Assembly: GCF_001280005.1 (NCBI RefSeq)
Contig: NZ_LGDW01000077.1
Span: 1-14,999, forward strand
Reading direction: 5' to 3'
DNA length: 14,999 nucleotides
From: Streptomyces sp. NRRL WC-3618
GTDB lineage: Bacteria > Actinomycetota > Actinomycetes > Streptomycetales > Streptomycetaceae
The notes under the pieces were generated by a model, which worked only from the letters and a program-made list of their open reading frames with translations, ran no database searches and was not told the DNA's origin. Below, in pieces: positions 1,892 through 14,999 of this stretch. Position 1 is the first letter of the stretch; the number at the start of each line of letters is the position of its first letter. The translations under genes and the position numbers were made by a program.

Positions 1892-2512
1892 TTATGTCCC
1901 GAGCAGCCGGGACTTCTGCTGGTCGAACTCGTCCTGTGTCAGCACTCCCTGCTCCAAAAGTGCCTTGAGTTTGCTGATTTCGTCGGCCACTGACAGAGGG
2001 GGAGAGGCTTGAACCTCCTTGATCGACGAGGAGGGGCCTTCCTCATTGTCTAGCTGCGCAGCGAGCGCGTTGAACGCATTGACGTACTGGTTTGCCGCCC
2101 GCAGGGCCGTCGAGTCCGGTGTCACGTTGTAGGTCTGGGCAGCCCCGTTACCGAAGGTCAGATTGACGACCGCCGAGCCTTTGTTCTTGCGCCCTGCCAC
2201 GGCGGAGAGACCGCCTGTTGCGACTCCGCCAGCGAGCCTTGTTGCCGTCCATGCCTTATGGGCGCCAGCATCCACGAACTCGGCCTGGCCACCGAGTACC
2301 GGTCCTTGCCCAGTCATACCGAATTTGGATGACGGCCACAAACGCATCATTGCTGCGGTGTTCATCGTCTTTTCAGTGGGATGCAATTTGCGCCAGTCTT
2401 TTAGCGCGTCTTTGTCTGCCTTTCGCTTGTCTACGGCTTCCCTGAGAGCCTGTTGCTTTTTCTCGCGTTCGGCGGTCTTCTGCGCAGATTTCTCCGGGTC
2501 ACGCTTGAACAT
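1892..2512 (-). CDS. SHOCT-domain protein
   Basis: This gene encodes 206 residues from the ATG at 2512. Residues 1-45 are a highly charged, Lys/Glu/Arg-rich helix likely to form a coiled coil. Residues 78-150 hold a small Gly/Ala-rich domain (HKAWTATRLAGGVATGGLS) of the type often found ahead of SHOCT in actinobacteria. Residues 177-204 are a clear SHOCT motif (ISKLKALLEQGVLTQDEFD, then KSRLLG), a short helical hairpin thought to mediate oligomerisation or protein contacts. No catalytic residues are visible. The frame is open up to 2578, but the extension (MPRTSATQRGMARPSCEG) is not protein-like. GAGG lies close to the 2512 ATG and AAGGGG about 11 bases before it, so an in-frame ATG nine bases further upstream (2521) is also possible. 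It lies downstream of lsr2 on the same strand and could share its transcript across the 246-base gap. Confidence 0.8.
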   Translation of the reverse strand: MFKRDPEKSAQKTAEREKKQQALREAVDKRKADKDALKDWRKLHPTEKTMNTAAMMRLWPSSKFGMTGQGPVLGGQAEFVDAGAHKAWTATRLAGGVATGGLSAVAGRKNKGSAVVNLTFGNGAAQTYNVTPDSTALRAANQYVNAFNALAAQLDNEEGPSSSIKEVQASPPLSVADEISKLKALLEQGVLTQDEFDQQKSRLLGT

Positions 2513-2758
2513 GATCCTCATCACCCCTTCGCAGGACGGGCGGGCCATGCCTCGCTGTGTAGCTGAGGTCCGTGGCATGTTGCAACTCGTATGGCTCCTT
2601 GGCCTAGTATCTCGCGGTGGGTAGGGCCGCGCAGGGCGACGACGACTCTCTCGGGACGGGCCGGGGCTCGGCCGTTGATGGCTACGAGGCGGGACGTGGT
2701 CACCGCAGCGGGTGCAGGAGGGAGCTTCGTGGTTCCTCGTCGAATCAGAAGCCGATGA

Positions 2759-3091
2759 TCAGTGGGCGGCCTCGTATTTTTCGATGACTTCGCGCGGCAC
2801 TCGGCCACGGGCGTTGACGTCAATTCCCTGGATCTTGGCCCACTCGCGCACTTTGATGGGATCCGGGCCATCAGTCGGCGGCTTGCTGCTACCGCGGCGG
2901 CGTGGTGCGCTGCCCGACTTGCGGCCGACTTTGAGGAAGGGCGCCAGGGCGTCCAGCAGTAGCTGGTGACTGTCAGGATTGAGGTCGATTTCGTAGCTGA
3001 CGCCATCGAGACTGAAAGTGTGCGTAGCGATGTCCTCACCCTCGGTATCCGTCAGATCGTCGGTGAAGACGGTCACGGTGCGCTGAACCAT
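2759..3091 (-). CDS. lsr2: Lsr2-family nucleoid-associated protein (xenogeneic silencer)
   Basis: The product is 110 residues and matches the usual Lsr2 length and plan. Residues 1-55 are the N-terminal beta/alpha dimerisation and oligomerisation domain (VTVFTDDLTDTEGED, TFSLDGVSYEIDL). A basic Pro/Ser-rich linker covers 56-77. Residues 78-110 are the DNA-binding domain (IKVREWAKIQGIDVNARGRV, then EKYEAAH), with the AT-hook-like R95-G96-R97 that enters the minor groove of AT-rich DNA. The family coats and silences AT-rich, often foreign, genes in actinobacteria. Its sequence differs enough from the main Streptomyces Lsr2 that it is probably an accessory paralogue, inferred from memory rather than a search. 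The ATG at 3091 is supported by GAGGAA about 8 bases upstream. Its position in a nuclease-rich island fits a silencer carried with foreign DNA. Confidence 0.93.
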   Translation of the reverse strand: MVQRTVTVFTDDLTDTEGEDIATHTFSLDGVSYEIDLNPDSHQLLLDALAPFLKVGRKSGSAPRRRGSSKPPTDGPDPIKVREWAKIQGIDVNARGRVPREVIEKYEAAH

Positions 3092-3123
3092 AGAAATTTC
3101 CTCTTTCCAAGTGGGCTGTAAGG

Positions 3124-3129
3124 AGTCTA
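3124..3129 (-). promoter_or_regulatory. Possible -10 element of lsr2
   Basis: On the minus strand TAGACT matches the actinobacterial TANNNT -10 pattern. It sits 32 bases upstream of the lsr2 ATG, which leaves room for a short leader carrying the GAGGAA site. No good -35 hexamer is visible at the expected distance. Confidence 0.3.
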
Positions 3130-3165
3130 ATAGCATGGAGGGGCGGACTTCGCCACCGGCAGGGC

Positions 3166-3614: not shown

Positions 3615-4439
3615 GTGCCAGAGAATACCCTCGGTGAGATCTTCCAGTCAGCGTCAGACCGGCTACGTGCCGACTTCCTCAGCTCCGGCGGGTTCGTGCA
3701 CCGCGGCGAAAAGGGCGGCGCACGTGAGCGGCTGTTGGTCGACTTCATCTCGAAGTACCTACCAGGACATGTCCAAGCGTTCCACAGTGGTGAGGTCATC
3801 ACAGTGGACGGCCGGGTGTCCTCTCAGTGCGACATCCTCATCTGCGACCGGAGCACTCCGCCCCTGCTGGACATGGAGAGCTATCGCATCGTGCCGAGCG
3901 AGTGCGTCTACGGGGTCATCGAGGTGAAGTCGAAGCTGGACTCCAAGGAGCTAATCGACGCCTGCGAGAAGCTGCGACGGGTCAAGCAGCTTCCGAAGAG
4001 CGCCTTCTACCCGCAGATGTTCCAGACGCAGTACCGGATGTACGGCCGGGAGTACACCTACTTGCCGACGGCCGGCATCATCTTCGCCTTCGACGGCATC
4101 GACATGGCGAAACTCGGCGACCAGCTGGCCGAGTGGTGCCGAGACAAGCCGCTCGATGAACGCCCCGACAGCGTATGGGTGATGGGCAAGGGCTACTTCA
4201 CCTGGGTGGACGAGTCCCCGCACCCCCAGGTCGCCGTGCAGGAGAGTAGTAACTTCGCTCTCATGGAACTGCCCGAGGTAGGTGAGGTGCTGTTCCCGTT
4301 CACCCTCTACCTCAGCATGCACTTTGCGGCTGCCCGGATGGACCCGCTAAAGCTGATCGACTATGCGAGCCAGACGTCGATCGGCTCGATGCGGACGACT
4401 TGGTCTGTGGGTTCCACGCCTGATGAGAACGCGCCCTGA
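3615..4439 (+). CDS. DUF6602-like protein with PD-(D/E)xK nuclease-fold core
   Basis: The 274-residue product starts at a GTG (first residues MPENTLGEIF); the ribosome binding site is weak, so the start is less certain than the frame. The N-terminal half has the DUF6602 pattern: a helix, then GGARERLLVDFISKYLPG, VSSQCDILICD and VYGVIEVKSKL. D73, E103 and K105 give the D...ExK arrangement of restriction-endonuclease-like folds, and E38 could complete the site. The C-terminal half (residues 130-260) is less conserved and may recognise a substrate or partner. Such proteins occur singly in defence islands and on mobile elements; their biochemical activity is not established to my knowledge. There is no methyltransferase or helicase beside it. 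It is followed at once by an oxidoreductase remnant, suggesting insertion into an older locus. Confidence 0.8.
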   Translation: MPENTLGEIFQSASDRLRADFLSSGGFVHRGEKGGARERLLVDFISKYLPGHVQAFHSGEVITVDGRVSSQCDILICDRSTPPLLDMESYRIVPSECVYGVIEVKSKLDSKELIDACEKLRRVKQLPKSAFYPQMFQTQYRMYGREYTYLPTAGIIFAFDGIDMAKLGDQLAEWCRDKPLDERPDSVWVMGKGYFTWVDESPHPQVAVQESSNFALMELPEVGEVLFPFTLYLSMHFAAARMDPLKLIDYASQTSIGSMRTTWSVGSTPDENAP

Positions 4440-4912: not shown

Positions 4913-5821
4913 ATGGCGTCGGGCAATGGTCGACGATCTGCGGTCAGAGAGGGTGCTGTTTCGGATGGCCACGGCGGCACCGTTATCCGTTTCACCTATG
5001 GGAAGGACGTCAATGACGTCCCTGGGACCTCTACGGCAGTCGCACAGTGCCTAGCGGAAATTCGCCTGCACCTCGCGGCTGGTGCGGACGCCCAGACCGT
5101 TAAGGCTGTGGCGCTCGTATACCGCGCGTTCGACGAGATCGCCGATGCGGAACGAACGGTTGGAACGGTCGCACACCAGCTGGATGACGCTTTGGCAGCC
5201 ACCAGCGTCCCAGAGGCGCTGATAACGCGCCTTCGAGAGTTGATGGATCTCGCTGCGAGAGCCCGCAGGCTTCAGGGGACCGTTCCCCGTCCTGCGCTGG
5301 AGCTGTTGGCCCAGGCAGAGGCCGGCCTGCAAGAGGCATCTGCGATGGGGTCTGCGAATGATCGTTTCGCCACGGCTCATCTGGCAGCACTACGCACCGC
5401 CGCCGCCGTGCTTGCTGCCCGAGGCCGGCCGCCGGAAGGCGCGAGCGATGGGCGCCGCAGGCGGATCCGCAGCGCATGGGAGGTCCTTCCTGAAGTAGCT
5501 CCGGAGCTGACCGAGTGGAGCGCTCTCTTCGCGGCCAGGGCTCAAACGCGCGCTCGCGCCGAGGCCGATCTCCCGGGCGCGGCGAGCATGCGCGAAGCGG
5601 AGGACTTGCTCCGCGATGCTCGGATGTTTCTCCGGATCAGCCAGCGGATACTCCTGTCTGACTCTCGGCAGCTTGAAAATCTGCGACTGCCGGACCCGGA
5701 GCCCGCGTTCCGAGACGCCGACGAGCGCGCAGCGCTCGACAGCCCACCGCTCGACATACCCCTTGGTCACACCCCGCCGGGCCCTCCACTGGGCGATGAC
5801 GACGATGAATGGGACGAGTAG
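4913..5821 (+). CDS. SAV_6107-like HEPN-domain protein
   Basis: This gene encodes 302 residues from the ATG at 4913, preceded by a GGGGG tract; the frame stays open upstream to 4778 with non-protein-like sequence. Residues 40-125 are mostly helical. Residues 128-250 match the actinobacterial SAV_6107 HEPN family as I remember it: LLAQAEAGLQEAS, AAHLAALRTAAAVLAAR-like text at 154-170, then RIRSAWEVLPEVAPELTEWS and MREAEDLLRDARMFL. HEPN domains are helical bundles found in RNases, toxins and nucleotide-binding regulators. I do not see the canonical catalytic Rx4-6H motif, so RNase activity is not assured. The C-terminus (260-302) is Pro-rich and ends in a strongly acidic DDDDEWDE tail. The next gene starts directly at its stop codon, so the two are surely co-translated. 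Compared with the family's usual short single-domain form it has an extra N-terminal helical region and the acidic tail. Confidence 0.72.
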   Translation: MASGNGRRSAVREGAVSDGHGGTVIRFTYGKDVNDVPGTSTAVAQCLAEIRLHLAAGADAQTVKAVALVYRAFDEIADAERTVGTVAHQLDDALAATSVPEALITRLRELMDLAARARRLQGTVPRPALELLAQAEAGLQEASAMGSANDRFATAHLAALRTAAAVLAARGRPPEGASDGRRRRIRSAWEVLPEVAPELTEWSALFAARAQTRARAEADLPGAASMREAEDLLRDARMFLRISQRILLSDSRQLENLRLPDPEPAFRDADERAALDSPPLDIPLGHTPPGPPLGDDDDEWDE

Positions 5822-6856
5822 TTGGGGGATATCGCCAAGGGTGTTCTCGGTGGCGGGTGGAGCCTGTTGGTCGGCTGGATCCTGCCGACAGCCATTAACT
5901 TGGGCATTCTGGCCATCACCATGGGGCCCAGCCTGCGCCAGGTCCCGGTGGCGAACCAGATATTCACTGCCTCGCCGGGCGCCAAGGCGCTGCTGTTACT
6001 GATTGCTTCCGTATTGACGGGCCTCATCCTAAATGCCTTGCAAGTCCCCCTCTATCGAGTTTTGGAGGGTTACCTGCTCTGGCCGGCGCGACTGTATGCG
6101 CGGCGCAGTCGCCACCACCGCAAGCGCCGTAGCGAACTGGCCGATGAACTCACACGGACGCGCCGCGCGCGTCGGGCTGCAGCTGGGCGGGTGCAGTCGG
6201 CAGGCACTGCACAGAGACCACTTACCCCTGACGGAGAAGCCCCAGCCGTGCCGGATCCACGCGACGAAGTACTAACAGCGACGCAGCAGGCGCTGCTTGG
6301 TGAGCGGCTGGCCAGATATCCGGTGCAGGACGACCAGGTCACTCCTACTAGGCTTGGCAACGCCATTCGGCGCTTGGAGGAGTATGGATATGACCGGTAT
6401 CGCCTAGATTCTCAGGTGCTTTGGAACGAGCTCACCGCGATGGCACCCGAGCAAGCTCGCCGGCAGGTCGACACCGCGCGCACCAGCGTCGACTTCTTCA
6501 TAGCCCTGCTGTACGGGCACACAGTCCTCGTCGCCATGGCCCTGTGTGCCACATCGGTTGATAGTGCCGATCCTCCAGTTCTCCTCGGCACGGCCGGCGT
6601 CCTCTGCGCTCTGTGCCCGCTTTGGTATCGGGCCGCGGTTGCAGCGACTGATGAATGGGCGGCAGCCGTCCGCGCACTGGTCAACCTGGGGCGCCACCCA
6701 TTGGCTCAGGCCATGGGCCTTGACCTGCCACAGGACATCGCAGAAGAGAGAGAAATGTGGCGGATGGTCTCTCGGATGTCCCGTTCCCGGTTCCACGACC
6801 GAGCTGTCGCTTTGAACCGCTTCCGCACCCCGCCTGGCATGGGTGAGCCTCGGTGA
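5822..6856 (+). CDS. Four-helix membrane protein with 'PTRLGN' motif
   Basis: The 344-residue product begins at a TTG that immediately follows the upstream TAG (zero spacing), which implies translational coupling with the HEPN gene. Hydrophobic segments at about 12-34, 54-75, 224-243 and 252-274 predict four membrane helices. Between helices 2 and 3 lies a large, probably cytoplasmic loop: a very basic stretch (85-125), a disordered Pro-rich part, then TPTRLGNAIRRLEEYGYDRY at 174-193. That motif with a downstream LW, helix pair and RAAVAATDEWAAAVRALVNL is shared by an uncharacterised actinobacterial membrane family I recognise but cannot name. The C-terminal tail is charged. Leu59 is a TTA codon (5996-5998), hinting at bldA control. 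With the HEPN partner it could form a membrane-linked stress or defence module; this is inference from gene order. Confidence 0.75.
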   Translation: MGDIAKGVLGGGWSLLVGWILPTAINLGILAITMGPSLRQVPVANQIFTASPGAKALLLLIASVLTGLILNALQVPLYRVLEGYLLWPARLYARRSRHHRKRRSELADELTRTRRARRAAAGRVQSAGTAQRPLTPDGEAPAVPDPRDEVLTATQQALLGERLARYPVQDDQVTPTRLGNAIRRLEEYGYDRYRLDSQVLWNELTAMAPEQARRQVDTARTSVDFFIALLYGHTVLVAMALCATSVDSADPPVLLGTAGVLCALCPLWYRAAVAATDEWAAAVRALVNLGRHPLAQAMGLDLPQDIAEEREMWRMVSRMSRSRFHDRAVALNRFRTPPGMGEPR

Positions 6857-6983
6857 ACGACCGCCCGGTGACGACGGGAGCCAGCGCTGGCATCTGTGGG
6901 CGAGGTCCTCGTCCGACGCCGGGAAGATCAACGGGCCGTCGGGTAGGTCGCCTCGGGGCGCGGCCGTTGTCAGAGGGGGGGGC

Positions 6984-6989
6984 TACTGT
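6984..6989 (+). promoter_or_regulatory. Possible -10 element for a leaderless transcript
   Basis: TACTGT fits TANNNT and ends 7 bases before the ATG at 6997, exactly where transcription would start at or next to the ATG. No ribosome binding site lies at a usable distance from that ATG; a G-run at 6974-6982 is about 14 bases away. The -35 is unclear, since TTGTCA at 6967-6972 is only 11 bases away. Confidence 0.35.
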
Positions 6990-6996
6990 CCGGCGC

Positions 6997-9126
6997 ATGC
7001 CGAAGAAGAGGAAGAAGAAGCCGTCGTCGCGGGCCCGGCGCACCGGCGAGGTTGCCCCGCACGAGCAACTGCCCTCCGTGATCAAGCTCGGTGGCCCGCC
7101 GGTGCCGTCGCGCGGGTGGACCTTTCAGGCGTTGATCGACGCGGGGCGGGAGTCTGGCCAGCCACTCTTGGAGTTCACGGCGCAGCCTCCCGACGGATAC
7201 TCATCCGATTTCGTCCCGCAGGTCGATTTCCCTCGGGCGCCGCTCCAAGCGGGGTGGTACCTGCGGTCCGACCTGGCCGTTCCGGTCTACCTGTGGGTGT
7301 TTTCCGAGAGCCAACTCGCCGATGATCCAGGCGCGTTGGATCTGCGGCGACGGGGGTTCGCCTTCTATGTGGCGCACTCGGTGTGTACGCACGGAGGAAG
7401 TGACGGCGCTTATGCCAGCGCGGAGGACTTGGAGGCGTGGATTCCGATTGTGGCGCCGGACCCGAGTGTCGTGGACGCCGACCGGTATGGCCACGCGCCC
7501 GTTTATCGCACGCCTGCGGCACGGCGGCTGCCCTCAGGATCTCCCCGCACGGTGGGAGTGCTGGATGCGGACTATGCGCGGGTAGCGGGCCGAAGCCTGC
7601 CCGAGCGCTGGGATATCGACGTAGTCGGCTTCTTGGTGATGGAACGACAGGACGCCGCCGACATGCCGGGACAGGAATTCTGGAGGCAAGTAGCCTTTCA
7701 CACGTTCCGAGATCAGAATCTGTCGGATCTCCGTGCCGTGGCCGGACACGTCGACCTGATCATCGGCCACAATCTCTTCGACGGCGACTACCGATGCCTG
7801 CGGACCTACGGCGACGTGGTGGACGTTGGCGTGCTGGCCGCGAAGACGGTGGACACGCTGTATGCCTCCCGTCATGTTGTCGGCGGCGGCGCATCTCGTG
7901 CGGCGCGTCTGGACCTCACCACGTTGGCGGGCGCCCAGGGACTGCGGGAGCGGGCGAAGACAGCGTCCCGGACCAAGGCCCACCGCGGCATCCGCGCCAT
8001 CCATGACGCGGAGGAGCGCTGGTTCTTCCAGCCCATTTCTGATGACTGCGAGCTGATGCTGGAGCTGTGGCTCGAACTGGTCACCAGCCGGCGCCTGCGC
8101 AGCGTCCTCCCGTCGGGTGAAGCGGTGGAGTACCCGGTGGGCGAGGACGGTCTGCGGCTGCTGCTGGAGCCGCAACTCGCCCCGGACACCTTCACGAACC
8201 TGCTGACGACGAAAGGCACTGTCTACCCGCTGCAGGGCGCGGCGCGCAATGAGAGCGTGGCCCGGATCCACCGCGAGATCGAACAGCAGCGGGCCGACGG
8301 CACGCTGGTCAATCGCCACCCCGCCGCCGCGCACCGCCAGCGCTGTATGGCACCCAGTGACACGGGGGGACGGCAGTGCGACCAGCTCATCGAGGCGACG
8401 CAGACGTATTGCCGTGCGCATCGCACCAAGCGGCGCTGCCGAGGGAATCCGGCCCTCGCCGACGCCTGCACCGCCATCGTCCACGGCGATCTGGCGCATT
8501 GTCGCTGGCACCGTATGACCGCGCTCTATGTGCCACAAGGGCAGCGAATCGTTGAGGACTTCACCCTGGCTCTGCCGCTTCGGGGCTGGGAGCGGGGCAG
8601 CGACTGGGGATACGACACGGGGACGCGTTCGTTCTTCGCGAGGCTGTACCGCAACGAGGCCGACTCGTCAGGCTCACCGACCGTATGGCTTTCGGGCACT
8701 GATCCCGACCTCGGTAACGTGGTCGCGCTCACGGACGCTGTGCAGAAAGCGACCGGGGCGTCCCGGCAGGACGTCGTGGCAGCCCTGACAGCGGATCGGA
8801 AGTCACCCCGAGAACGTGCCGTGATCACCCAGGACTGGGAACCGGCCGGGTGCGACCGTCCCTGCCCGTGCGGCACCGCGGACTGTGGCCACGGCGCACC
8901 GTGCCCGAACGACGAGTGCAGCGGTCACGACGTCCATACGATGCGCAACCCTCGCACCGAAGCGGACGTGACAGCGTGGCAGGACCATTTCGACTGCTGC
9001 GAGGGCTGCTCCGGCAGCTTCCTGGACATCTCACTCCCGGAACGCCCCTGGGGCGAGAAGCACGACGACGGCACCGTGACCGTGTACGCCGGGGTGTCCC
9101 ACTACGAGCTCGGTGTCTACCCGTAG
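6997..9126 (+). CDS. Predicted RNase H-fold (DEDD-type) exonuclease with multiple zinc-binding clusters
   Basis: The 709-residue product starts with a very basic MPKKRKKKPSSRARR segment. Residues 25-165 are a domain I do not recognise. Residues 184-365 resemble YprB/DnaQ-like 3'-5' exonucleases: VGVLDADY (D190/D192) could be ExoI, DLIIGHNLFDGDYRCL (N259, D262) is a clear ExoII motif, KTVDTLY and RLDLTTLAG follow, and ISDDCELMLELW (D349/D350) fits ExoIII. Next come two tandem CCCH knuckles: C450-x10-C461-x10-C472-x2-H475 and C481-x9-C491-x10-C502-x2-H505. Residues 525-605 hold a domain (DTGTRSFFARLYRN, VWLSG) seen in uncharacterised actinobacterial proteins. A last Cys/His-rich region includes C619, C623, C625, C630, C636, C641, C667, C668 and C671. 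The likely role is nucleic-acid recognition and trimming. The frame also extends to a GTG at 6853 that overlaps the membrane gene's stop as GTGA; I prefer 6997 because the extra 48 residues are low complexity. Confidence 0.75.
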   Translation: MPKKRKKKPSSRARRTGEVAPHEQLPSVIKLGGPPVPSRGWTFQALIDAGRESGQPLLEFTAQPPDGYSSDFVPQVDFPRAPLQAGWYLRSDLAVPVYLWVFSESQLADDPGALDLRRRGFAFYVAHSVCTHGGSDGAYASAEDLEAWIPIVAPDPSVVDADRYGHAPVYRTPAARRLPSGSPRTVGVLDADYARVAGRSLPERWDIDVVGFLVMERQDAADMPGQEFWRQVAFHTFRDQNLSDLRAVAGHVDLIIGHNLFDGDYRCLRTYGDVVDVGVLAAKTVDTLYASRHVVGGGASRAARLDLTTLAGAQGLRERAKTASRTKAHRGIRAIHDAEERWFFQPISDDCELMLELWLELVTSRRLRSVLPSGEAVEYPVGEDGLRLLLEPQLAPDTFTNLLTTKGTVYPLQGAARNESVARIHREIEQQRADGTLVNRHPAAAHRQRCMAPSDTGGRQCDQLIEATQTYCRAHRTKRRCRGNPALADACTAIVHGDLAHCRWHRMTALYVPQGQRIVEDFTLALPLRGWERGSDWGYDTGTRSFFARLYRNEADSSGSPTVWLSGTDPDLGNVVALTDAVQKATGASRQDVVAALTADRKSPRERAVITQDWEPAGCDRPCPCGTADCGHGAPCPNDECSGHDVHTMRNPRTEADVTAWQDHFDCCEGCSGSFLDISLPERPWGEKHDDGTVTVYAGVSHYELGVYP

Positions 9127-9237: not shown

Positions 9238-12200
9238 TCAGCTGTGGCGCCAGGTTTGGCGCAGGCGCAGGACTTCGGTGGCCCAGTGGGCGGGAAGGTC
9301 TGGTTCGGGTATGCGTTCGCGGCCGAGGCTGAAGCGGACGTGGCGGTAGAGCCAGTGCAGCGAGGCGTCCGAGCTCGCGACGAGTGTGGACAGCAGCGGT
9401 TCACCGACCGGTGTCTCCCGGTCGACGGCGACCAGGAGTTCACCTTGGTCGTCCGGGTGCAGGTGCGGCAGCCCGCCCGCCATCCGCAGCCGCAGGTCAC
9501 CCCACGTCAGAAGTGAGCCGCCGCTGCGCGCCGCGTCCTTGAGGACGTCCCGGGCGATGGCGGCCAGCTTGTCGATGGTCTCGATCGGCAGACGGTCCGG
9601 GGGAGACGGTGCGGTGGCCTTGGGACCGGGGACGGCCTTGACCGGGTCCGCCGCGCGCGGTGCGGCACGACGCGGCGCGCTCGAGGTGCGGGCCTTGAAC
9701 TGGCGCTTCCACCGCTTGACGTGAACCTCTTCGAGCACCGGCAGGCGCCGGTCCAACTGACGGCTCAGCGAGCTGATCTCGTCGAGGAACGCGGCGAGTT
9801 GCTCGGTGGCCAGACCGTTGCCGGCACGGCCGAGTTCCGCGAGGACTTGACGGATACGGCGCAGGATCGGGTCCGTGTTCGGATCCTGTTCCTGGCACCA
9901 CGCCTTCACCTCGCGCATCAACGGCGTGTAGGTGGAACGGTCTTCGGGCGACAGACGCCGGCCGTAGATGGGTCCGGCCAAGTGGCGCGCGGTCTGGACC
10001 GCAGCCAGGTCGCCGGCCTCCTGCGCGGCGCGGATCTCCTGCACGAGCCAGGCGAACTCCGCTCGGGCTTCTGCGAAAGCGGCAGACTCGGAAGGTGGCG
10101 CGCCACTGGGTGACGGGTGGGACGCCGACGGGGCTCCGTCGTCTGGAGTCACCGATTCGCCGTTGACCTGGGCTTCCACGCGGGTGAGCGCCGTGTGGAG
10201 GTCCGGCGGCAGGGGGCCGGGGCAGCGTCGTTTGAGAATCTTCGAGTGGGCCAGGGCACTGCGCAGGGCGAGAGGCGTGGGGGCGGGGCCGGCCGTCGCG
10301 AGGTCGGCGAACAAGGTGCGCAGCGCCGCGTGGGCGGCTGCTGCTTCACGGCTGTTGATCCAGGTCTGCAGGTCGGTGCGGAGCAGTAGGAGGTTCTGCC
10401 GTGGCTCACTGGACAGGCGTTCCGTGGCGATCCGTGAGACTTCCTTGCGGATCTGTCTGGCCTCGTTCAGGTCGTCGGCATCACGGGCCTGCTTGAACAG
10501 CTGCGTCAGACGGGCGATGTCTGCTGTCGCCTGCGCCTGGAACGTGCGCTGGTCCTTCCCCGGCGGGACGGGGCTCTTCGCGGCGGCGGGCGGGCCGGCG
10601 GGCGTGCTCTTCTTCGGGGGAGCAGACGCCGGCAGAGGGTGGCCAATGAGGCGGTCGAGGTCGTCCAGGAGCCGCTCGCTCTCTCGTTGCCACGCGCGCA
10701 GCTCCTGCCTGCGTTGCCGGACAGTCTCGTAGAGCCGTTGGTGCTGTTCGCCGTCCTTGACCGTGGTGGTCAGGCGGGCGGCGCGACGGCCGGTGGCGTG
10801 GGGCAACGTGGCACGGCCCACGGCCAACTGGGCCTTGAGGAGGGTCAGTTGTTCCTGGGCGGCCCGCGCTTCCGCGGGGCGGGGCGCCTCCGCAATGGCA
10901 GCCGATGCCGGTAGGGGAGGAGCAGGGTGGCCGTACGCCGTATGCGCAGCGCGGATCTGCTCGTCGCTCCACCGGTACAGCGCGGACTCCGAGGCCGGGG
11001 CGGGGACTTGGAGCAGGCGCAGCACGGTGGCGAGATAGGACAGGGGACGGCCGGAGGGCGCGCGGACCAGGACGCACAACAGCGGCCGGTTCCGGTCTCG
11101 CGGCTTGTCGACCTCCACGAGGAGGTCCCGGCGCTTGGGATCGGGCAGGTGCGCGAGATCCAGGCCGATCCGCTCGCCTAGCAGTTTCCACGTGGTGGTG
11201 GCCCCCTCCCGCGCCACGTCTTCGAGAGCCCGCCGCAGCAGTATGGCGGTGCGGCTGCCCTGGGACTGCACCGGAACGGTGGAGGCCGGGGCGGGCCGCG
11301 TGGCGGGCTTCGGCGCGGGCAGGGGCTCGTCCAGGGCGACGGAGGGACGCCACAGGCCGGTACGTTCCGCGTCCAGGCCCTTGAGCTGGATGAGGCTGTC
11401 CGCGCGCACCGCCCAACCGGTGTTCTCACCCGGTCGGTCGGCTTCGGTGACCAGCAGGCGCACCGCGCCCGCCAGCCGGTACACGTACTGCTCGGTGGGG
11501 CGGGGTGTGTCGTGGGGCAAGGAGAGCTGGGCCTTGAGGATCCGGTGTCCGGCCGGTTTGATGAAGCCGGATATCAGGTACCGGCCGCTCTCCACTAGGG
11601 GCGAGTCGGTGTCCGGCCGGGCCTCGCCGTCGATCGCGAAGACGATCTCGGCGCCGCGCAGCGGCAGGCTGCCGGCCACGGCGTCGTGGCGCGCGGCGCC
11701 CTCGCGGATCAGCCCGCGGCTACGCAGTTCGTCGAGGTCGGGGGTGATGAGGCCGTTGCCGGTCATCCGGCACTGCTCGAGCGGGGACCAGGCGACGGGG
11801 CGGTTGTCGGTGACCGTGCCGATCAGAACCCGGCGGCTGTTGCCGTCGGTTTCGCACCGCACCCGCAGGGCATAGCCGTATCGGGCAGTCATATCCCGGG
11901 TGATGGCGCTCTCCAGCCCGAAGACCCACTCGACATGCCCTTCCTTGGCGGCCAGGCTGTCCGCCGTTCCACGCCAGCTACGGTAGTCGTTGGGCCGCAG
12001 CTCGAAGCGCAGGCGTTGATTCGTGGCACGCAGCACGAAGTCCACGGCATCCCCGGGGCCGTGCCCGAGGCTGCACAACTCGGCCTGCGCCGCGTGCCCC
12101 TGGCCCGCCAGCCACTGCGTCACGTGCGCTTTGACGAACAGGTGATCGGCGCTGTCGACGCCGTTGGCCGTGCGATGACAGGCCGCCCGGCTTCCGTCGC

Positions 12201-12423
12201 GGTCCGGGAAATGGGAGAAGTGACAGACCTTCGTTTCGTAGCGCTTGGTCATCAGCCGCTCGCCGCAGCCACCGAGCAGCGTGCCGCACCAGAAGTCGTC
12301 CTTGCCGAACTGGCGGCGGAACTCATCCAGATTGTGCGGCTCCTCGGGCAGGATGACCGGCTGGTCCGAATCCTGGCCTCCCATGACCGCCGTCTGGACG
12401 AGACGGAAGTCGATCTGCGCCAC
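9238..12423 (-). CDS. Large CoiA-like zinc/nuclease protein with duplicated C-terminal domain
   Basis: The product has 1061 residues, starting at a GTG with GGAGG about 8 bases upstream. Residues 40-150 resemble the competence protein CoiA family: a zinc cluster (C46, C53, C67, H71, C82/H83; FWCGTLLGGCGERL, VCHFSHFP) followed by a nuclease-like core with SADHLFVKAHVTQWL, E115, D125/D128 in GDAVDFVL and E141 in RFELRP. Residues 155-350 are an unassigned beta-rich region. A ~110-residue domain at 391-500 (TTTWKLLGERIG, RRDLLVEVDKPRDRNRPLL) recurs at 949-1061 (LLTWGDLRLRMAG, GELLVAVDRETPVGEPLL). Between the copies lie long helical, probably coiled-coil segments (515-610, 630-760, 800-925) split by Pro/Ala-rich linkers. 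CoiA itself supports DNA uptake and recombination in competent bacteria; here a DNA-processing or defence role is only inferred. It converges on the exonuclease gene with 111 bases between stops. Confidence 0.78.
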   Translation of the reverse strand: MAQIDFRLVQTAVMGGQDSDQPVILPEEPHNLDEFRRQFGKDDFWCGTLLGGCGERLMTKRYETKVCHFSHFPDRDGSRAACHRTANGVDSADHLFVKAHVTQWLAGQGHAAQAELCSLGHGPGDAVDFVLRATNQRLRFELRPNDYRSWRGTADSLAAKEGHVEWVFGLESAITRDMTARYGYALRVRCETDGNSRRVLIGTVTDNRPVAWSPLEQCRMTGNGLITPDLDELRSRGLIREGAARHDAVAGSLPLRGAEIVFAIDGEARPDTDSPLVESGRYLISGFIKPAGHRILKAQLSLPHDTPRPTEQYVYRLAGAVRLLVTEADRPGENTGWAVRADSLIQLKGLDAERTGLWRPSVALDEPLPAPKPATRPAPASTVPVQSQGSRTAILLRRALEDVAREGATTTWKLLGERIGLDLAHLPDPKRRDLLVEVDKPRDRNRPLLCVLVRAPSGRPLSYLATVLRLLQVPAPASESALYRWSDEQIRAAHTAYGHPAPPLPASAAIAEAPRPAEARAAQEQLTLLKAQLAVGRATLPHATGRRAARLTTTVKDGEQHQRLYETVRQRRQELRAWQRESERLLDDLDRLIGHPLPASAPPKKSTPAGPPAAAKSPVPPGKDQRTFQAQATADIARLTQLFKQARDADDLNEARQIRKEVSRIATERLSSEPRQNLLLLRTDLQTWINSREAAAAHAALRTLFADLATAGPAPTPLALRSALAHSKILKRRCPGPLPPDLHTALTRVEAQVNGESVTPDDGAPSASHPSPSGAPPSESAAFAEARAEFAWLVQEIRAAQEAGDLAAVQTARHLAGPIYGRRLSPEDRSTYTPLMREVKAWCQEQDPNTDPILRRIRQVLAELGRAGNGLATEQLAAFLDEISSLSRQLDRRLPVLEEVHVKRWKRQFKARTSSAPRRAAPRAADPVKAVPGPKATAPSPPDRLPIETIDKLAAIARDVLKDAARSGGSLLTWGDLRLRMAGGLPHLHPDDQGELLVAVDRETPVGEPLLSTLVASSDASLHWLYRHVRFSLGRERIPEPDLPAHWATEVLRLRQTWRHS
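9241..9579 (-). repeat. Second copy of the internal protein domain repeat
   Basis: These bases encode residues 949-1061 of the large CoiA-like protein. The copy shares with the first an order of L..AAR.G, TW..L..R, L.HL.P, LLV.VD, PLL..LV and a final W....R. It is a diverged duplication, not a DNA-level repeat. Confidence 0.6.
10924..11253 (-). repeat. First copy of the internal protein domain repeat
   Basis: These bases encode residues 391-500 of the same protein. The domain resembles a small helical module found at the ends of several large actinobacterial proteins. Its function is unknown to me. Confidence 0.6.
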
Positions 12424-12549
12424 CAGCAGTTCCTCCGAAAACAGTCAGCACCCATCCACCCAAGGAGGCACACGCCCCGGAGCACCCCTGGAGCCTGCGA
12501 AGTCACACACGTCCCGACGGTGCAGCGACGTCTTGGGCCACCCGATGAG

Positions 12550-12578
12550 ATTATCTGTTGCGTCGGACAATGCGTCAG
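12550..12578 (-). promoter_or_regulatory. Promoter of the large CoiA-like gene
   Basis: On the minus strand CTGACG (12578-12573) and GATAAT (12555-12550) are separated by exactly 17 bases. They match the housekeeping consensus at 4 of 6 and 5 of 6 positions. Transcription would start near 12543, giving a leader of about 120 bases before the GTG at 12423. The site lies just beyond the IS3 remnant. Confidence 0.5.
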
Positions 12579-12624
12579 GTGTGGTGTGCAGCGCCGCCCG
12601 GAAAATCCTTGGCGGGCTCCGGTC

Positions 12625-13037
12625 CGGCGGGAGAACGTGTCGACGACGAAGGCAACGGAGACGACACCGGCCCAGGTCTTCACGTGGGTGAAGTCGGCGA
12701 CCCAGCACCGGTTCGGGGCAGCGGCGACGAAGTCGCGGTCCGGCAGGTCCTGCGCCCGTTCGACCTGTCCGCCGGGCAGCGTGGTGATCACGCGTCTGCC
12801 GCAGACCGCTCCGGTGATGCCGAGTTGGCGCATCAGGCGTTCGACGGTGCAGCGGGCCACGAGATGGCCCTGCTGGTTCAGCTCACGCCAGATCTTCCTG
12901 GCCCCGTGGACGCGGTAGTTGGCCTCGAAGACCTCGCTGATCTGTTCCTACAGCTCGGCGTCCCGCACGGTCCTGGCCGACGGCGTGCTCCGTCGTTTGT
13001 GGTGGGCGTAGTAGGTGGAGGGGGTGATCTTGCACCC
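12625..13037 (-). pseudogene. IS3-family transposase (OrfB) remnant, truncated at both ends with an in-frame stop
   Basis: Translation on the minus strand gives GCKITPSTYYAHHKRR, a TAG stop at 12950-12948, then EVFEANYRVHGARKIWRELN, CTVERLMRQLGITGAVCGRR, FVAAAPNRCWVADFTHVKTW and VAFVVDTFSRR. This is the helix-turn-helix and start of the integrase core of IS3-family OrfB, including the first catalytic Asp (WVADFT). Similarity stops just after FSRR, so the rest of the DDE domain is gone, and the 5' part before GCKI is also missing. About 138 codons remain of a protein normally near 300. It cannot encode an active enzyme. It lies between two CoiA-like genes. Confidence 0.85.
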
Positions 13038-13056: not shown

Positions 13057-14418
13057 TCAGGGCAGCTGCGAGGAGTTAGTGGGTTTCACGGCCTGAGCTG
13101 TGCGCGCGGCGGCAAAGACTGCCCTGCGGGCGCTGAACGGATCGTGGGCCGAGCGTAGCCATGGGTGGGTCGCCAGAGCGGCGGCCAGCCGCCTGCACTC
13201 TTCCTGGGCTGTGAGCCACCGCTCTCGTTCTGCGCGGGTGATGTCGGCTCGTCCTGCCGCGATGTCGGCTGCCGCCGGGAGGGCGTCGGCGAATGCTCCA
13301 AGGTGCTGAAGGGCGGAATCCAACGTCAGCCTCGCCGCCACTACATCGCCGGGAATCTCCCAGCCGTCCACGTTCCACGTGGACCTGTACTCGGGCGGCG
13401 GCTCCTTCGACAGCCAGTCGGAGGCATCGATGGGATCGCCGCTGTCGCGGGGGCGCGCGAGTTCCGTGCGTATCCCGGTGTCCTGGCCGTAGTGGCAGTG
13501 CGGGTCGGGCGGGAGCGGCTCGGCGGGGAGGAGCGTGGCGGTTGAGCCTGCAGTCGATGCCGGCAGATAGGGATCTGGTTCCGGACGGCCTTGGAGGAAC
13601 TCCGCTTTGTCCGACGGCTTCACCCACATGTGCCAGCCGCGCCGCCGCCCTGCTCGTGCTCGCATGAACAGTGTCACGAGCTCGCCCGTGGCTGTCATGC
13701 GCACCATGTCGTCGTAGTGCGCCTGGGTTGATTCCCACGTGGCGTGCCAACCGCCGCAGCGCGTTCCCGTCTTGGGGCATTCGCGCTGAGTGCTCCAGTC
13801 GCAGCGGACCATGCGCAACGCCTTGACGCCTCCTCGTACGCGCAAGGCGTCCCGGCTGCCCACGTCCTGCCATCGTTGGACGTTCAGTCTGGCCCAAGGT
13901 GCCCGGTCGATGGCGAGTGAGTTCTCGTTCGTCACGAGCCATAGCGGTGTCAGGCCGTCGTCCACCGCGGTGCGCGTCCTGTTGTCCACAGAACCACTCG
14001 CGATCGGTGAGATCTGGATCTCGTAGCCGATCTTCTTTCCGCTGGCCCCGGCGACCGTTACATCAGTACGACGGCGACCATGTACGGCTCGGTCTTCGAC
14101 GCAGACGTTGAAGCCCTCCCGGCTGGCTGCTTCGGCGGTGTGGTTCTTGAGCGCCTTGTGTAGCTCGCTCTCACCTGCTGTCTCGGAGACCTCGCCCCTG
14201 GTTACGTGCCGGGCGTGGTAGCGGCCGTTCTTCTCGACGATGGTCATGAACCCGGGGCAGACGGTCCCGTATTCGTGCGCCCCGAGGCAGTAGAGAAGGT
14301 CGGGCTTGTAATTGCGGTGAATCTCCTGCAGGAGCCCCGGGTGGTCGGGGTTACCCAGGTCTGACGCACTCAAGTCGATAGTGATCCCGTAACCGCGATG
14401 CAGCACGTTGTGGGTCAT
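13057..14418 (-). CDS. CoiA-like nuclease-fold protein
   Basis: This gene encodes 453 residues from the ATG at 14418. The frame stays open upstream to 14982, but that part lies antisense to a transposase remnant and is not protein-like. Residues 40-75 have C44, C54 and H68/H71, a possible zinc site. Residues 82-165 carry the CoiA-like nuclease core: GESELHKALKN (H87, K88), RRRTDVTV (D119) and GYEIQIS (E133, Q135), followed by LTPLWLVTN. A second zinc site is likely at C206-x7-C214-x6-C221-x3-H225. Residues 245-270 are basic and aromatic, and the C-terminal third is helical. D...ExQ fits a PD-(D/E)xK-type nuclease. No ribosome binding site is seen; it may be leaderless. The stop lies about 20 bases before IS3 homology begins, so the natural C-terminus may have been altered by that insertion. 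Confidence 0.78.
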   Translation of the reverse strand: MTHNVLHRGYGITIDLSASDLGNPDHPGLLQEIHRNYKPDLLYCLGAHEYGTVCPGFMTIVEKNGRYHARHVTRGEVSETAGESELHKALKNHTAEAASREGFNVCVEDRAVHGRRRTDVTVAGASGKKIGYEIQISPIASGSVDNRTRTAVDDGLTPLWLVTNENSLAIDRAPWARLNVQRWQDVGSRDALRVRGGVKALRMVRCDWSTQRECPKTGTRCGGWHATWESTQAHYDDMVRMTATGELVTLFMRARAGRRRGWHMWVKPSDKAEFLQGRPEPDPYLPASTAGSTATLLPAEPLPPDPHCHYGQDTGIRTELARPRDSGDPIDASDWLSKEPPPEYRSTWNVDGWEIPGDVVAARLTLDSALQHLGAFADALPAAADIAAGRADITRAERERWLTAQEECRRLAAALATHPWLRSAHDPFSARRAVFAAARTAQAVKPTNSSQLP

Positions 14419-14424
14419 GCTTCG

Positions 14425-14430
14425 AGGGTA
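14425..14430 (-). promoter_or_regulatory. Possible -10 element for a leaderless transcript
   Basis: On the minus strand TACCCT fits TANNNT and ends 6 bases before the ATG at 14418, the spacing expected for a leaderless mRNA. There is no purine-rich ribosome binding site before the ATG. No clear -35 is visible. Confidence 0.3.
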
Positions 14431-14512
14431 AGTCCTGCCTCTGACATTGATATTGGTAGGCAGGTTCTGGTGGTCGTGGCTCGGCCTCTGACTGACAACG
14501 GAGCTGGTTGCC

Positions 14513-14563
14513 GGGGCGGGGCTGATCGGTGGCGGTGCCTCTACTGGCGAGCAACCCCGCCCC
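14513..14563. repeat. 9 bp perfect inverted repeat with 33-base loop
   Basis: GGGGCGGGG at 14513-14521 is exactly complementary to CCCCGCCCC at 14555-14563. It lies between the CoiA-like gene and the transposase remnant. There is no T-run beside it, so an intrinsic terminator is doubtful, and GC-rich pairing like this arises easily by chance here. Confidence 0.35.
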
Positions 14564-14640
14564 CTGAATGCACTGCTTGCCTTCGTGCGCTGTTGTGGTC
14601 GGCTGGGAGCGAGTTCTGGGTGTTGTGTGAGGGGACTCCG

Positions 14641-14999
14641 CGGGTGCTGGGCGTGGACGACTTCTCCCTCTACGGCGATACCTACGGGACGCTTTTGGTC
14701 GACACCACCACCCGTCTTCCTCTCACGCTTTGGGAGGGACGGGACGCGGAACAGCTCAGCCGCTGGCTCCGTGAGCACCCAGGCGTTGAAATCGTCTGCT
14801 GTGACGGCTCGCTGACATACCGGCAAGGCATTACCGCCGACGCCCCCGATCGGGGCTGCCTGCCCGCGGCCCTTCCGCCGGCCGAAGAGGCCGACCCGGT
14901 GCCGGACGACGAGACCGCCGAGGACACCGCGGCGGACATCCGGGCCGGGCGGTACGCCAGGAGGCTGTTCCAGGCCGTGCACTCCCTGACCGCATCCGG
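14641..14999 (+). pseudogene. ISL3-like DDE transposase remnant, running off the window
   Basis: From 14641 the plus strand reads RVLGVDDFSLYGDTYGTLLV, then LWEGRDAEQLSRWLREHPGV, CCDGSLTYRQGI and TADAP. This is the start of an ISL3-type DDE domain with the first Asp pair (GVDDF) and the second acidic region (CCDGS). It then jumps to RGCLPAALPPAEE and ARRLFQAVHSLTASG. From memory of the family, the segment containing VQVSDRFHLWQGLSRR normally lies between these, so about 20-30 residues seem deleted in frame. Upstream of 14641 the frame gives no zinc-finger N-terminus or credible start. The frame is open at the window end. It is almost certainly inactive. Confidence 0.72.

What the first reader, a model, noticed from the sequence alone, without database searches (positions are those of the whole stretch)
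4913..9126. Candidate three-gene system: HEPN protein, four-helix membrane protein, zinc-finger exonuclease
Three same-strand genes sit together in an island of nucleases and mobile-element scars. The first two abut with zero spacing, and the third begins at or shortly after the second's stop. The set combines a HEPN domain (common in RNA-targeting conflict systems), a membrane protein of an uncharacterised actinobacterial family and a predicted DEDD exonuclease with many zinc sites. I know of no described system with this composition. The domains are seen in the sequence; the joint function is inference.
Basis: partly seen in the sequence, partly recalled or inferred. Interest (0 to 1): 0.75.

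Follow-up and report, generated by a model that had tools for sequence, protein, structure and literature searches.

The report
Swappable heads on membrane docking module
The first two genes are one example of an apparently undescribed two-gene module of soil bacteria in which many unrelated proteins carry the same short end-peptide and sit directly before the same membrane protein; the third gene looks like an unrelated neighbour.

Summary
G1 (HEPN, 4913-5821) and G2 (membrane protein, 5822-6856) are real, abut exactly, and are linked in other Streptomyces. G3 does not belong: tblastn found it in none of 69 named G2 loci, and full-length G3 occurs in three sampled genomes without a G2 match. 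HEPN is not the core either. G2 homologues follow many unrelated genes (kinase, AraC/DJ-1 regulator, M4 peptidase, TerD, EACC1, Trypco2, HEPN) that share only a C-terminal tail, T[PS]PGPx(3-4)DDD(E)W: present by a strict pattern in 44 of 66 loci, in 0 of 575 other called genes. Synonymous changes exceed amino-acid changes in the tail, also between different heads, so it is kept as peptide. In one clade, DNA homology between differently headed loci starts at the tail and stops near the end of G2; one locus keeps a displaced head with tail and decayed G2 start. At one chromosomal site, eight strains with 79.5-97% identical flanks carry different heads in 21 of 28 pairs. Best reading: tail plus G2 is a constant cassette that docks exchangeable cytosolic heads to a membrane protein, probably in conflict or stress signalling. 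Docking and function are inferred; AlphaFold did not place the tail. My searches found no description.

The parts
4913..5821 (+). G1: head protein, 302 aa; unknown N-terminal part, SAV_6107-type HEPN, constant C-terminal tail
   Evidence: Pfam PF18726 1.1e-30. Of the 120 listed relatives, 10 (P0001-P0009, P0011) end in the tail; the other 109 HEPN-bearing ones lack it, and P0010 is a fragment without HEPN.
5336..5635 (+). SAV_6107-type HEPN domain of G1; G1 is 64% identical over 144 aa to the separate core SAV_6107 protein of the same genome
5768..5818 (+). constant C-terminal tail HTPPGPPLGDDDDEWDE (residues 286-302), the proposed docking peptide
   Evidence: strict tail in 44 of 66 genes upstream of G2 homologues, 0 of 575 other called genes; dN below dS in 15 of 15 pairs of position-picked tails of six loci
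5822..6856 (+). G2: constant membrane partner, 344 aa, TTG start, four hydrophobic regions, large middle part taken as cytosolic (orientation inferred)
   Evidence: homologues; alignment A1; all-helical models; hydropathy
5765..6856 (+). constant cassette: tail plus G2, the unit of DNA homology between differently headed loci
   Evidence: by analogy with L037/L043/L047/L051/L055/L070: in 11 of 12 differently headed pairs homology starts at 5928-5939 (G2 start 6001) and ends near the end of G2
6997..9126 (+). G3: separate gene, judged not part of the module
   Evidence: not found in the other G2 loci; full-length in 4 of 200 genomes, 3 of them without a G2 match

Best explanation
G1-G2 is one version of a modular two-gene system. 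SHOWN: the downstream gene (G2) is a conserved membrane protein; the upstream gene has an exchangeable head and a conserved C-terminal tail T[PS]PGPx(3-4)DDD(E)W; tail and G2 travel together as one cassette, while heads, and in one clade both flanks, differ. INFERRED: the tail is a docking peptide that binds the cytosolic part of G2, so that G2 works as a membrane platform to which different cytosolic sensors, enzymes or adaptors (HEPN, kinase, regulator, peptidase, TerD, EACC1, Trypco2) are plugged in. INFERRED, weaker: the complex works in a membrane-proximal conflict or stress response in which the head senses or executes and G2 transmits, releases or permeabilises; the window's HEPN head then probably acts as a binding or sensing domain and not as an RNase.
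For: Strict tail in 44 of 66 loci with at least 200 nt upstream of G2, against 0 of 575 other called genes of the same loci. Over both strands of 103 loci (950 kb), 60 strict tails: 59 directly upstream of G2 (three of them second copies of one place), one displaced. 25 head clusters among 51 heads. Pfam heads above cut-off: AraC/DJ-1, Pkinase, EACC1, TerD, Trypco2, M4 peptidase, HEPN. A W follows in 43 of the 44, which the pattern does not demand. Position-picked tails of six loci: dN 0-0.126, dS 0.097-0.699, dN below dS in 15 of 15 pairs; the 18 codons before the tail are unrelated (6 synonymous, 239 other differences). Tail kept where the genes overlap out of frame, 15 of 44, so it acts in trans. 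DNA homology begins at the tail between differently headed loci. Displaced Trypco2 head with tail and decayed G2 start in L047. Same chromosomal site, different heads: 21 of 28 pairs of 8 loci without head similarity beyond the tail, flank gene 79.5-97.1% identical. Conflict link: EACC1 and Trypco2 heads; plasmid L120 carries an EACC1-caspase pair nearby; a distant G2 relative in Nostoc lies next to a gene annotated as caspase family, with WD40 repeats.
Against: AlphaFold2 of tail+linker+G2 (L064) left the tail at pLDDT about 39-47, with no docking. No binding, localisation or phenotype data exist. Of the 66 loci, 11 show no recognisable tail and 7 distant ones only a partial or different end (sorted by eye). 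Head labels are mostly clade-coherent on the G2 tree: 24 labels need 23 changes, the minimum; repeated exchange is clear in one clade only. One displaced cassette in 69 loci. Tail proteins far from G2 were not searched genome-wide. 19 of 30 scanned heads have no Pfam match above cut-off. TerD, M4 peptidase or AraC heads are not specific to conflict systems.
Confidence: 0.6

Rival explanations
1. G2 is itself the effector (for example a channel that depolarises the membrane), and the heads are interchangeable triggers or inhibitors that act through the tail.
For: Constant G2 with small-residue-rich helices; heads of sensor or adaptor type (EACC1, Trypco2, HEPN, kinase); distant relatives near caspase-family genes.
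Against: No pore or toxin fold recognised (no Foldseek match with E<=0.001), which is weak evidence. Peptidase, kinase and regulator heads have outputs of their own.
Confidence: 0.22
2. The tail is a sorting or processing signal cut or anchored by G2, as in C-terminal sorting systems or the FxSxx-COOH peptide system.
For: Unrelated proteins share one C-terminal tag next to one membrane protein; variable precursors with a conserved C-terminal peptide are described for FxSxx-COOH (passage of PMC7159879).
Against: Tail is short and acidic, without hydrophobic segment; several heads are of types usually cytosolic (kinase, AraC, HEPN); the window's G2 matches no peptidase or sortase model in Pfam or NCBIfam.
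Confidence: 0.08
3. Tail and G2 form one polypeptide after stop-codon readthrough; the two genes are a recent fission.
For: 26 of 29 non-overlapping junctions are in frame, 17 with exactly 3 nt between stop and start; one in-frame junction without stop in G716 (L133).
Against: 15 of 44 junctions overlap out of frame and still keep the tail. Junctions seem inherited with the cassette, so the 26 are not independent. The L133 copy has a stop upstream and an open frame of only 219 aa, so it looks degenerate.
Confidence: 0.04
4. The tail is conserved as DNA or RNA, as ribosome-binding or coupling element for G2.
For: It lies just upstream of G2's start; genes overlap or nearly abut.
Against: Synonymous changes outnumber amino-acid changes in tails picked by position (46 against 25 in six loci; dN below dS in 15 of 15 pairs); third codon positions differ at about 0.40; tail-to-start distance varies, with gaps of -8 to 42 nt.
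Confidence: 0.02
5. The reader's three-gene HEPN, membrane protein and exonuclease defence system.
For: Same strand and close spacing.
Against: G3 not found in the other G2 loci but in genomes without a G2 match; HEPN replaced by other heads elsewhere.
Confidence: 0.02

Closest known systems
System 4, EACC1 two-gene conflict system (Kaur et al. 2020, PMC7159879; section 33 and passages seen)
   Same: Two adjacent genes, membrane-associated, one constant and one highly variable; EACC1 also occurs here as a head.
   Different: There EACC1 is the constant 5' part and the 3' gene carries caspase plus variable domain. Here the 5' gene is variable except for a short tail and the 3' gene is a constant membrane protein with four hydrophobic regions.
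EAD coupling (PMC7159879, PMC8195603; passages seen)
   Same: A small constant element recruits many domains to one core.
   Different: EADs act by homotypic domain contacts; here a short tail is paired with one dedicated membrane protein (pairing inferred).
Rhs polymorphic toxins with orphan modules (PMC3967940; abstract and passages seen); CDI recalled
   Same: Constant part, variable part, displaced module with a repeat of the constant part.
   Different: Order is inverted (constant end is C-terminal plus the next gene); secretion and immunity genes were not looked for systematically, and none was noticed.
C-terminal sorting tags with dedicated membrane enzymes (recalled; no call)
   Same: One short tag on unrelated proteins, paired with one membrane protein.
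   Different: No hydrophobic segment after the motif, and several heads look cytosolic.

Membership tests
EACC1 two-gene conflict system | 5' gene with an EACC1 domain | tested here: not met
   Window G1 is HEPN_SAV_6107, no EACC1 match. EACC1 is the head in some relatives (L039, L058, L064, L071 above cut-off).
EACC1 two-gene conflict system | 3' gene with caspase or cyclase domain | tested here: not met
   G2 has no Pfam match above cut-off and its profile has no PDB sequence relative.
HEPN ribonuclease toxins | conserved catalytic RxxxxH motif | tested here: inconclusive
   Literal RFATAH at residues 151-156, but the table passage of PMC3710099 gives 'No' for SAV_6107.
Rhs/CDI polymorphic toxins | displaced orphan module with a repeat of the constant part | tested here: met
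   In one related locus, not in the window: L047, repeat of -73 to +96 around the G2 start, 85% identical, 900 nt upstream. No such repeat in the window.
Rhs/CDI polymorphic toxins | immunity gene and secretion apparatus | not tested
   Not searched systematically.
C-terminal sorting systems (exosortase type; features recalled) | motif, hydrophobic segment and basic cluster at the C-terminus | tested here: not met
   Window protein ends DDDDEWDE; no hydrophobic segment there. A basic cluster occurs in a distant clade (L080, L086, L089).
Known defence systems in PADLOC-DB 2.0.0 | match of G1, G2 or G3 to a system model | tested here: inconclusive
   G1: PDC-M05B 6.8e-6 through the HEPN region; G2 and G3 none.
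8xMP (PF24838) | match above Pfam's cut-off | tested here: not met
   13.1 bits against 30.

The most novel reading that the evidence does not exclude
A new kind of bacterial modular system: a roughly 1 kb 'socket' cassette (docking tail plus dedicated membrane protein) that recombines into loci and converts whatever domain lies upstream (kinase, regulator, peptidase, HEPN, conflict adaptor) into a membrane-docked signalling component. A wider superfamily uses a C-terminal zinc ribbon in place of the tail.
Probability: 0.35. Interest if true: 0.9.

Novelty: new variant of a known kind. Interest (0 to 1): 0.74.

Why it matters
If right, a single binding test (tail with G2) would give a function-neutral way to find and group dozens of uncharacterised actinobacterial proteins, because the tail marks the partners of G2 whatever their head. 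It would also show a membrane-anchored counterpart of the constant/variable logic of polymorphic toxins and EAD systems, with heads exchanged at a defined point, and would give a natural short tag for plugging proteins into a membrane hub.

Tried and rejected

Literature searches for an existing description; TPPGP with Streptomyces and HTPPGP, HTSPGP, DPDDDW, PGPPLGDDDD gave 0 papers. The library lacks most subscription journals.
Full report
WHAT IS THERE. The window lies in a Streptomyces-like genome (G000:C77; nearest named relatives are Streptomyces). G1 (4913-5821) and G2 (5822-6856) abut with zero spacing and in the same frame; G2 starts with TTG. G1 carries a SAV_6107-type HEPN (PF18726, 1.1e-30, residues 142-241). 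The genome has a separate SAV_6107 protein of core type on another contig (C280), 64% identical to G1 over 144 residues, so G1 holds a second copy of this domain in a new setting. G2 is a 344-residue protein with four hydrophobic regions, without a match above cut-off in Pfam or NCBIfam and without a PADLOC match.

THE THIRD GENE DOES NOT BELONG. Tblastn of the window's proteins against the 103 loci then held (69 named with up to 6 kb on each side, 34 shorter ones) found G3 only in the window's own copies (L001, L101), although L031-L033 carry G1 at 92-96% and G2 at 97-98% identity. In 200 family genomes, full-length G3 is found in 4 (G000, G096, G155, G073); the last three are not among the 36 genomes with any G2 match. 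Close G3 homologues of 708-709 aa fit a start at 6997, not 6853.

HEPN IS ONE OF MANY HEADS. Homologues of G2 at about 50-60% identity mostly have another gene in front. Of 30 representative heads scanned, 11 have a Pfam match above cut-off: AraC/DJ-1 (L044), Pkinase (L050), TerD (L051), EACC1 (L039, L058, L064, L071), Trypco2 (L070 and the displaced copy in L047), M4 peptidase (L008) and, not counted as a head type, polyketide-synthase domains in L056; EACC1 falls just below cut-off in L061 and L077; the rest have none. Three Streptomyces plasmids carry M4, TerD and H37-type heads (the last is 67% identical to L037's head without the tail). Clustering gives 25 groups among 51 heads; this is rough, as it splits diverged EACC1 heads and may join some wrongly.

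THE CONSTANT PART IS A TAIL. These heads end in, or close to, T[PS]PGPx(3-4)DDD(E)W; the window's reads HTPPGPPLGDDDDEWDE. Of 69 named loci, 66 have at least 200 nt upstream; the strict pattern is met in 44, a looser core in 7 more, and 15 fail both. By eye, L042, L049, L054 and L060 are near misses; seven distant ones (L080, L083, L084, L086, L089, L096, L098) have a partial or different end; 11 have none, several of them decayed or partial copies. Among 575 other called genes of the same loci none has the strict tail and 2 have the loose core. Over both strands of 103 loci (950 kb) there are 60 strict tails, 59 directly before G2 (three of them second copies of one place) and one displaced (the displaced one was not among the called genes of the control). 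A W follows in 43 of the 44 strict tails, though the pattern does not demand it.

IT IS KEPT AS PEPTIDE. In one search third codon positions of the tail differ at about 0.40 and first and second at 0.02-0.07 (43 loci, and 18 with one per head cluster), but its columns were picked by the pattern, which lowers the last two by construction. In a fairer test, the last 18 codons of six loci, picked by position, give dN of 0-0.126 and dS of 0.097-0.699, dN below dS in 15 of 15 pairs, with 46 synonymous against 25 other differences; the 18 codons just before have 6 against 239, as expected of mostly unrelated heads. Of 44 junctions, 15 overlap out of frame and 29 do not overlap; 26 of the 29 are in frame, which I take as inheritance of the junction with the cassette. 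Because the tail is kept when out of frame with G2, it should work as the end of the head protein.

TAIL AND G2 MOVE TOGETHER. In one clade of the G2 tree (99% support) H37, TerD, Trypco2 and a further head alternate. DNA comparison of its six loci gives 12 differently headed pairs: in 11 of them homology starts at 5928-5939 (5913-5916 in L043/L047), G2 starting at 6001, and it ends near the end of G2, with heads and flanks not alike. Of the three pairs that share the H37 head, two (L037/L055, L043/L055) extend about 450 nt further upstream and one (L037/L043) does not. In L047 a Trypco2 head with tail is followed by a decayed 96-nt start of G2, then by a new head, tail and full G2; the repeat is 85% identical and 900 nt apart. 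This is the scar expected when a new head displaces an old one, and it is the only one seen: a self-comparison found no other in the 69 named loci or the window (L053 shows an inverted repeat at a contig end), and no two of the 29 places lie close together. On the whole tree the 24 head labels need 23 changes, the minimum, so most heads are old within their clades.

ONE SITE, DIFFERENT HEADS. About a dozen loci share one chromosomal site between a biotin-carboxylase gene and a DeoR regulator followed by a pyridine-nucleotide-disulphide oxidoreductase gene. For 8 of them (L099 left out), 28 pairs were compared: the biotin-carboxylase neighbour is 79.5-97.1% identical, while heads are similar in 7 pairs (EACC1 or EACC1-like), align only over 14-23 residues (about the tail) in 8, and not at all in 13. 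The site is variably occupied: of 30 loci taken from 61 genomes, 1 has G2 in the stretch, 22 have DeoR (in three of them only 76-119 nt from the carboxylase, so empty), and 7 have neither within about 1.5 kb.

WIDER FAMILY. Distant relatives of G2 (25-35% identity, L016-L030) also follow a partner gene. In 12 of the 14 that I read, that partner ends in a zinc-ribbon-like C-terminus instead of the tail (not L016 and L030; L019 not read; by eye). A Nostoc plasmid has the same order, followed by a gene annotated as caspase family with NA-iREase1 and WD40 domains. This suggests a general plan, variable head plus C-terminal docking element plus membrane protein, but it rests on few loci.

HOW COMMON. 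In 200 family genomes 14 have a strong G2 match (over 200 bits; 36 have any). The tail-G2 profile matches in 25 of 392 genus genomes, and A1 in 4 of 396 phylum genomes, the window's own included each time.

HOW IT MAY WORK. I commit to docking: the acidic, proline-rich tail binds the conserved cytosolic part of G2 and holds the head at the membrane. This is inference. AlphaFold2 gave a confident helical G2 in a tail-linker-G2 construct, but a tail of low confidence. A conflict or stress role is suggested by EACC1 and Trypco2 heads, which PMC7159879 describes in conflict systems (passages and section 33), by the EACC1-caspase pair near the plasmid copy L120, and by nuclease-like genes around the window's copy. 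It is not shown.

KNOWN OR NOT. I found no description in the held library; absence there is weak evidence. The constant/variable logic is known from EACC1, EAD and Rhs/CDI systems; the parts and their order differ. I therefore rate it a new variant of a known kind, with a fair chance that it is a kind of its own.

Noticed in passing
window 3615-4439 (+): DUF6602 protein (9.3e-29) that also matches PADLOC PD_DExK (4.6e-32) and NucC models; a likely nuclease 473 nt before G1.
   Followed up: no
window 2759-3136 (-) and 1892-2578 (-): Lsr2-like protein with both Lsr2 domains, and a SHOCT-domain protein.
   Followed up: no
window 9238-12423 (-) and 12252-12860 (-): 1061-aa protein without Pfam match whose 5' end overlaps a transposase-like frame (rve and HTH_21, both below cut-off); parts of it have relatives in L041.
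   Followed up: no
window 13057-14982 (-): CoiA-type nuclease domain (9.4e-8).
   Followed up: no
L039:5266-5997: One EACC1 head protein ends in two tails in tandem.
   Followed up: partly
L133 (genome G716): Tail and G2 in one frame without a stop, but with a stop upstream and only 219 aa open; probably degenerate.
   Followed up: partly
L044 and L046: Identical G2 with AraC-type head near both ends of the Streptomyces cyaneochromogenes chromosome record.
   Followed up: no
L016-L030, L121: Distant G2 relatives whose upstream partner mostly ends in a zinc-ribbon-like C-terminus.
   Followed up: partly
L078 and L090: Very small heads that look like little more than one hydrophobic helix plus the tail (read by eye).
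   Followed up: no
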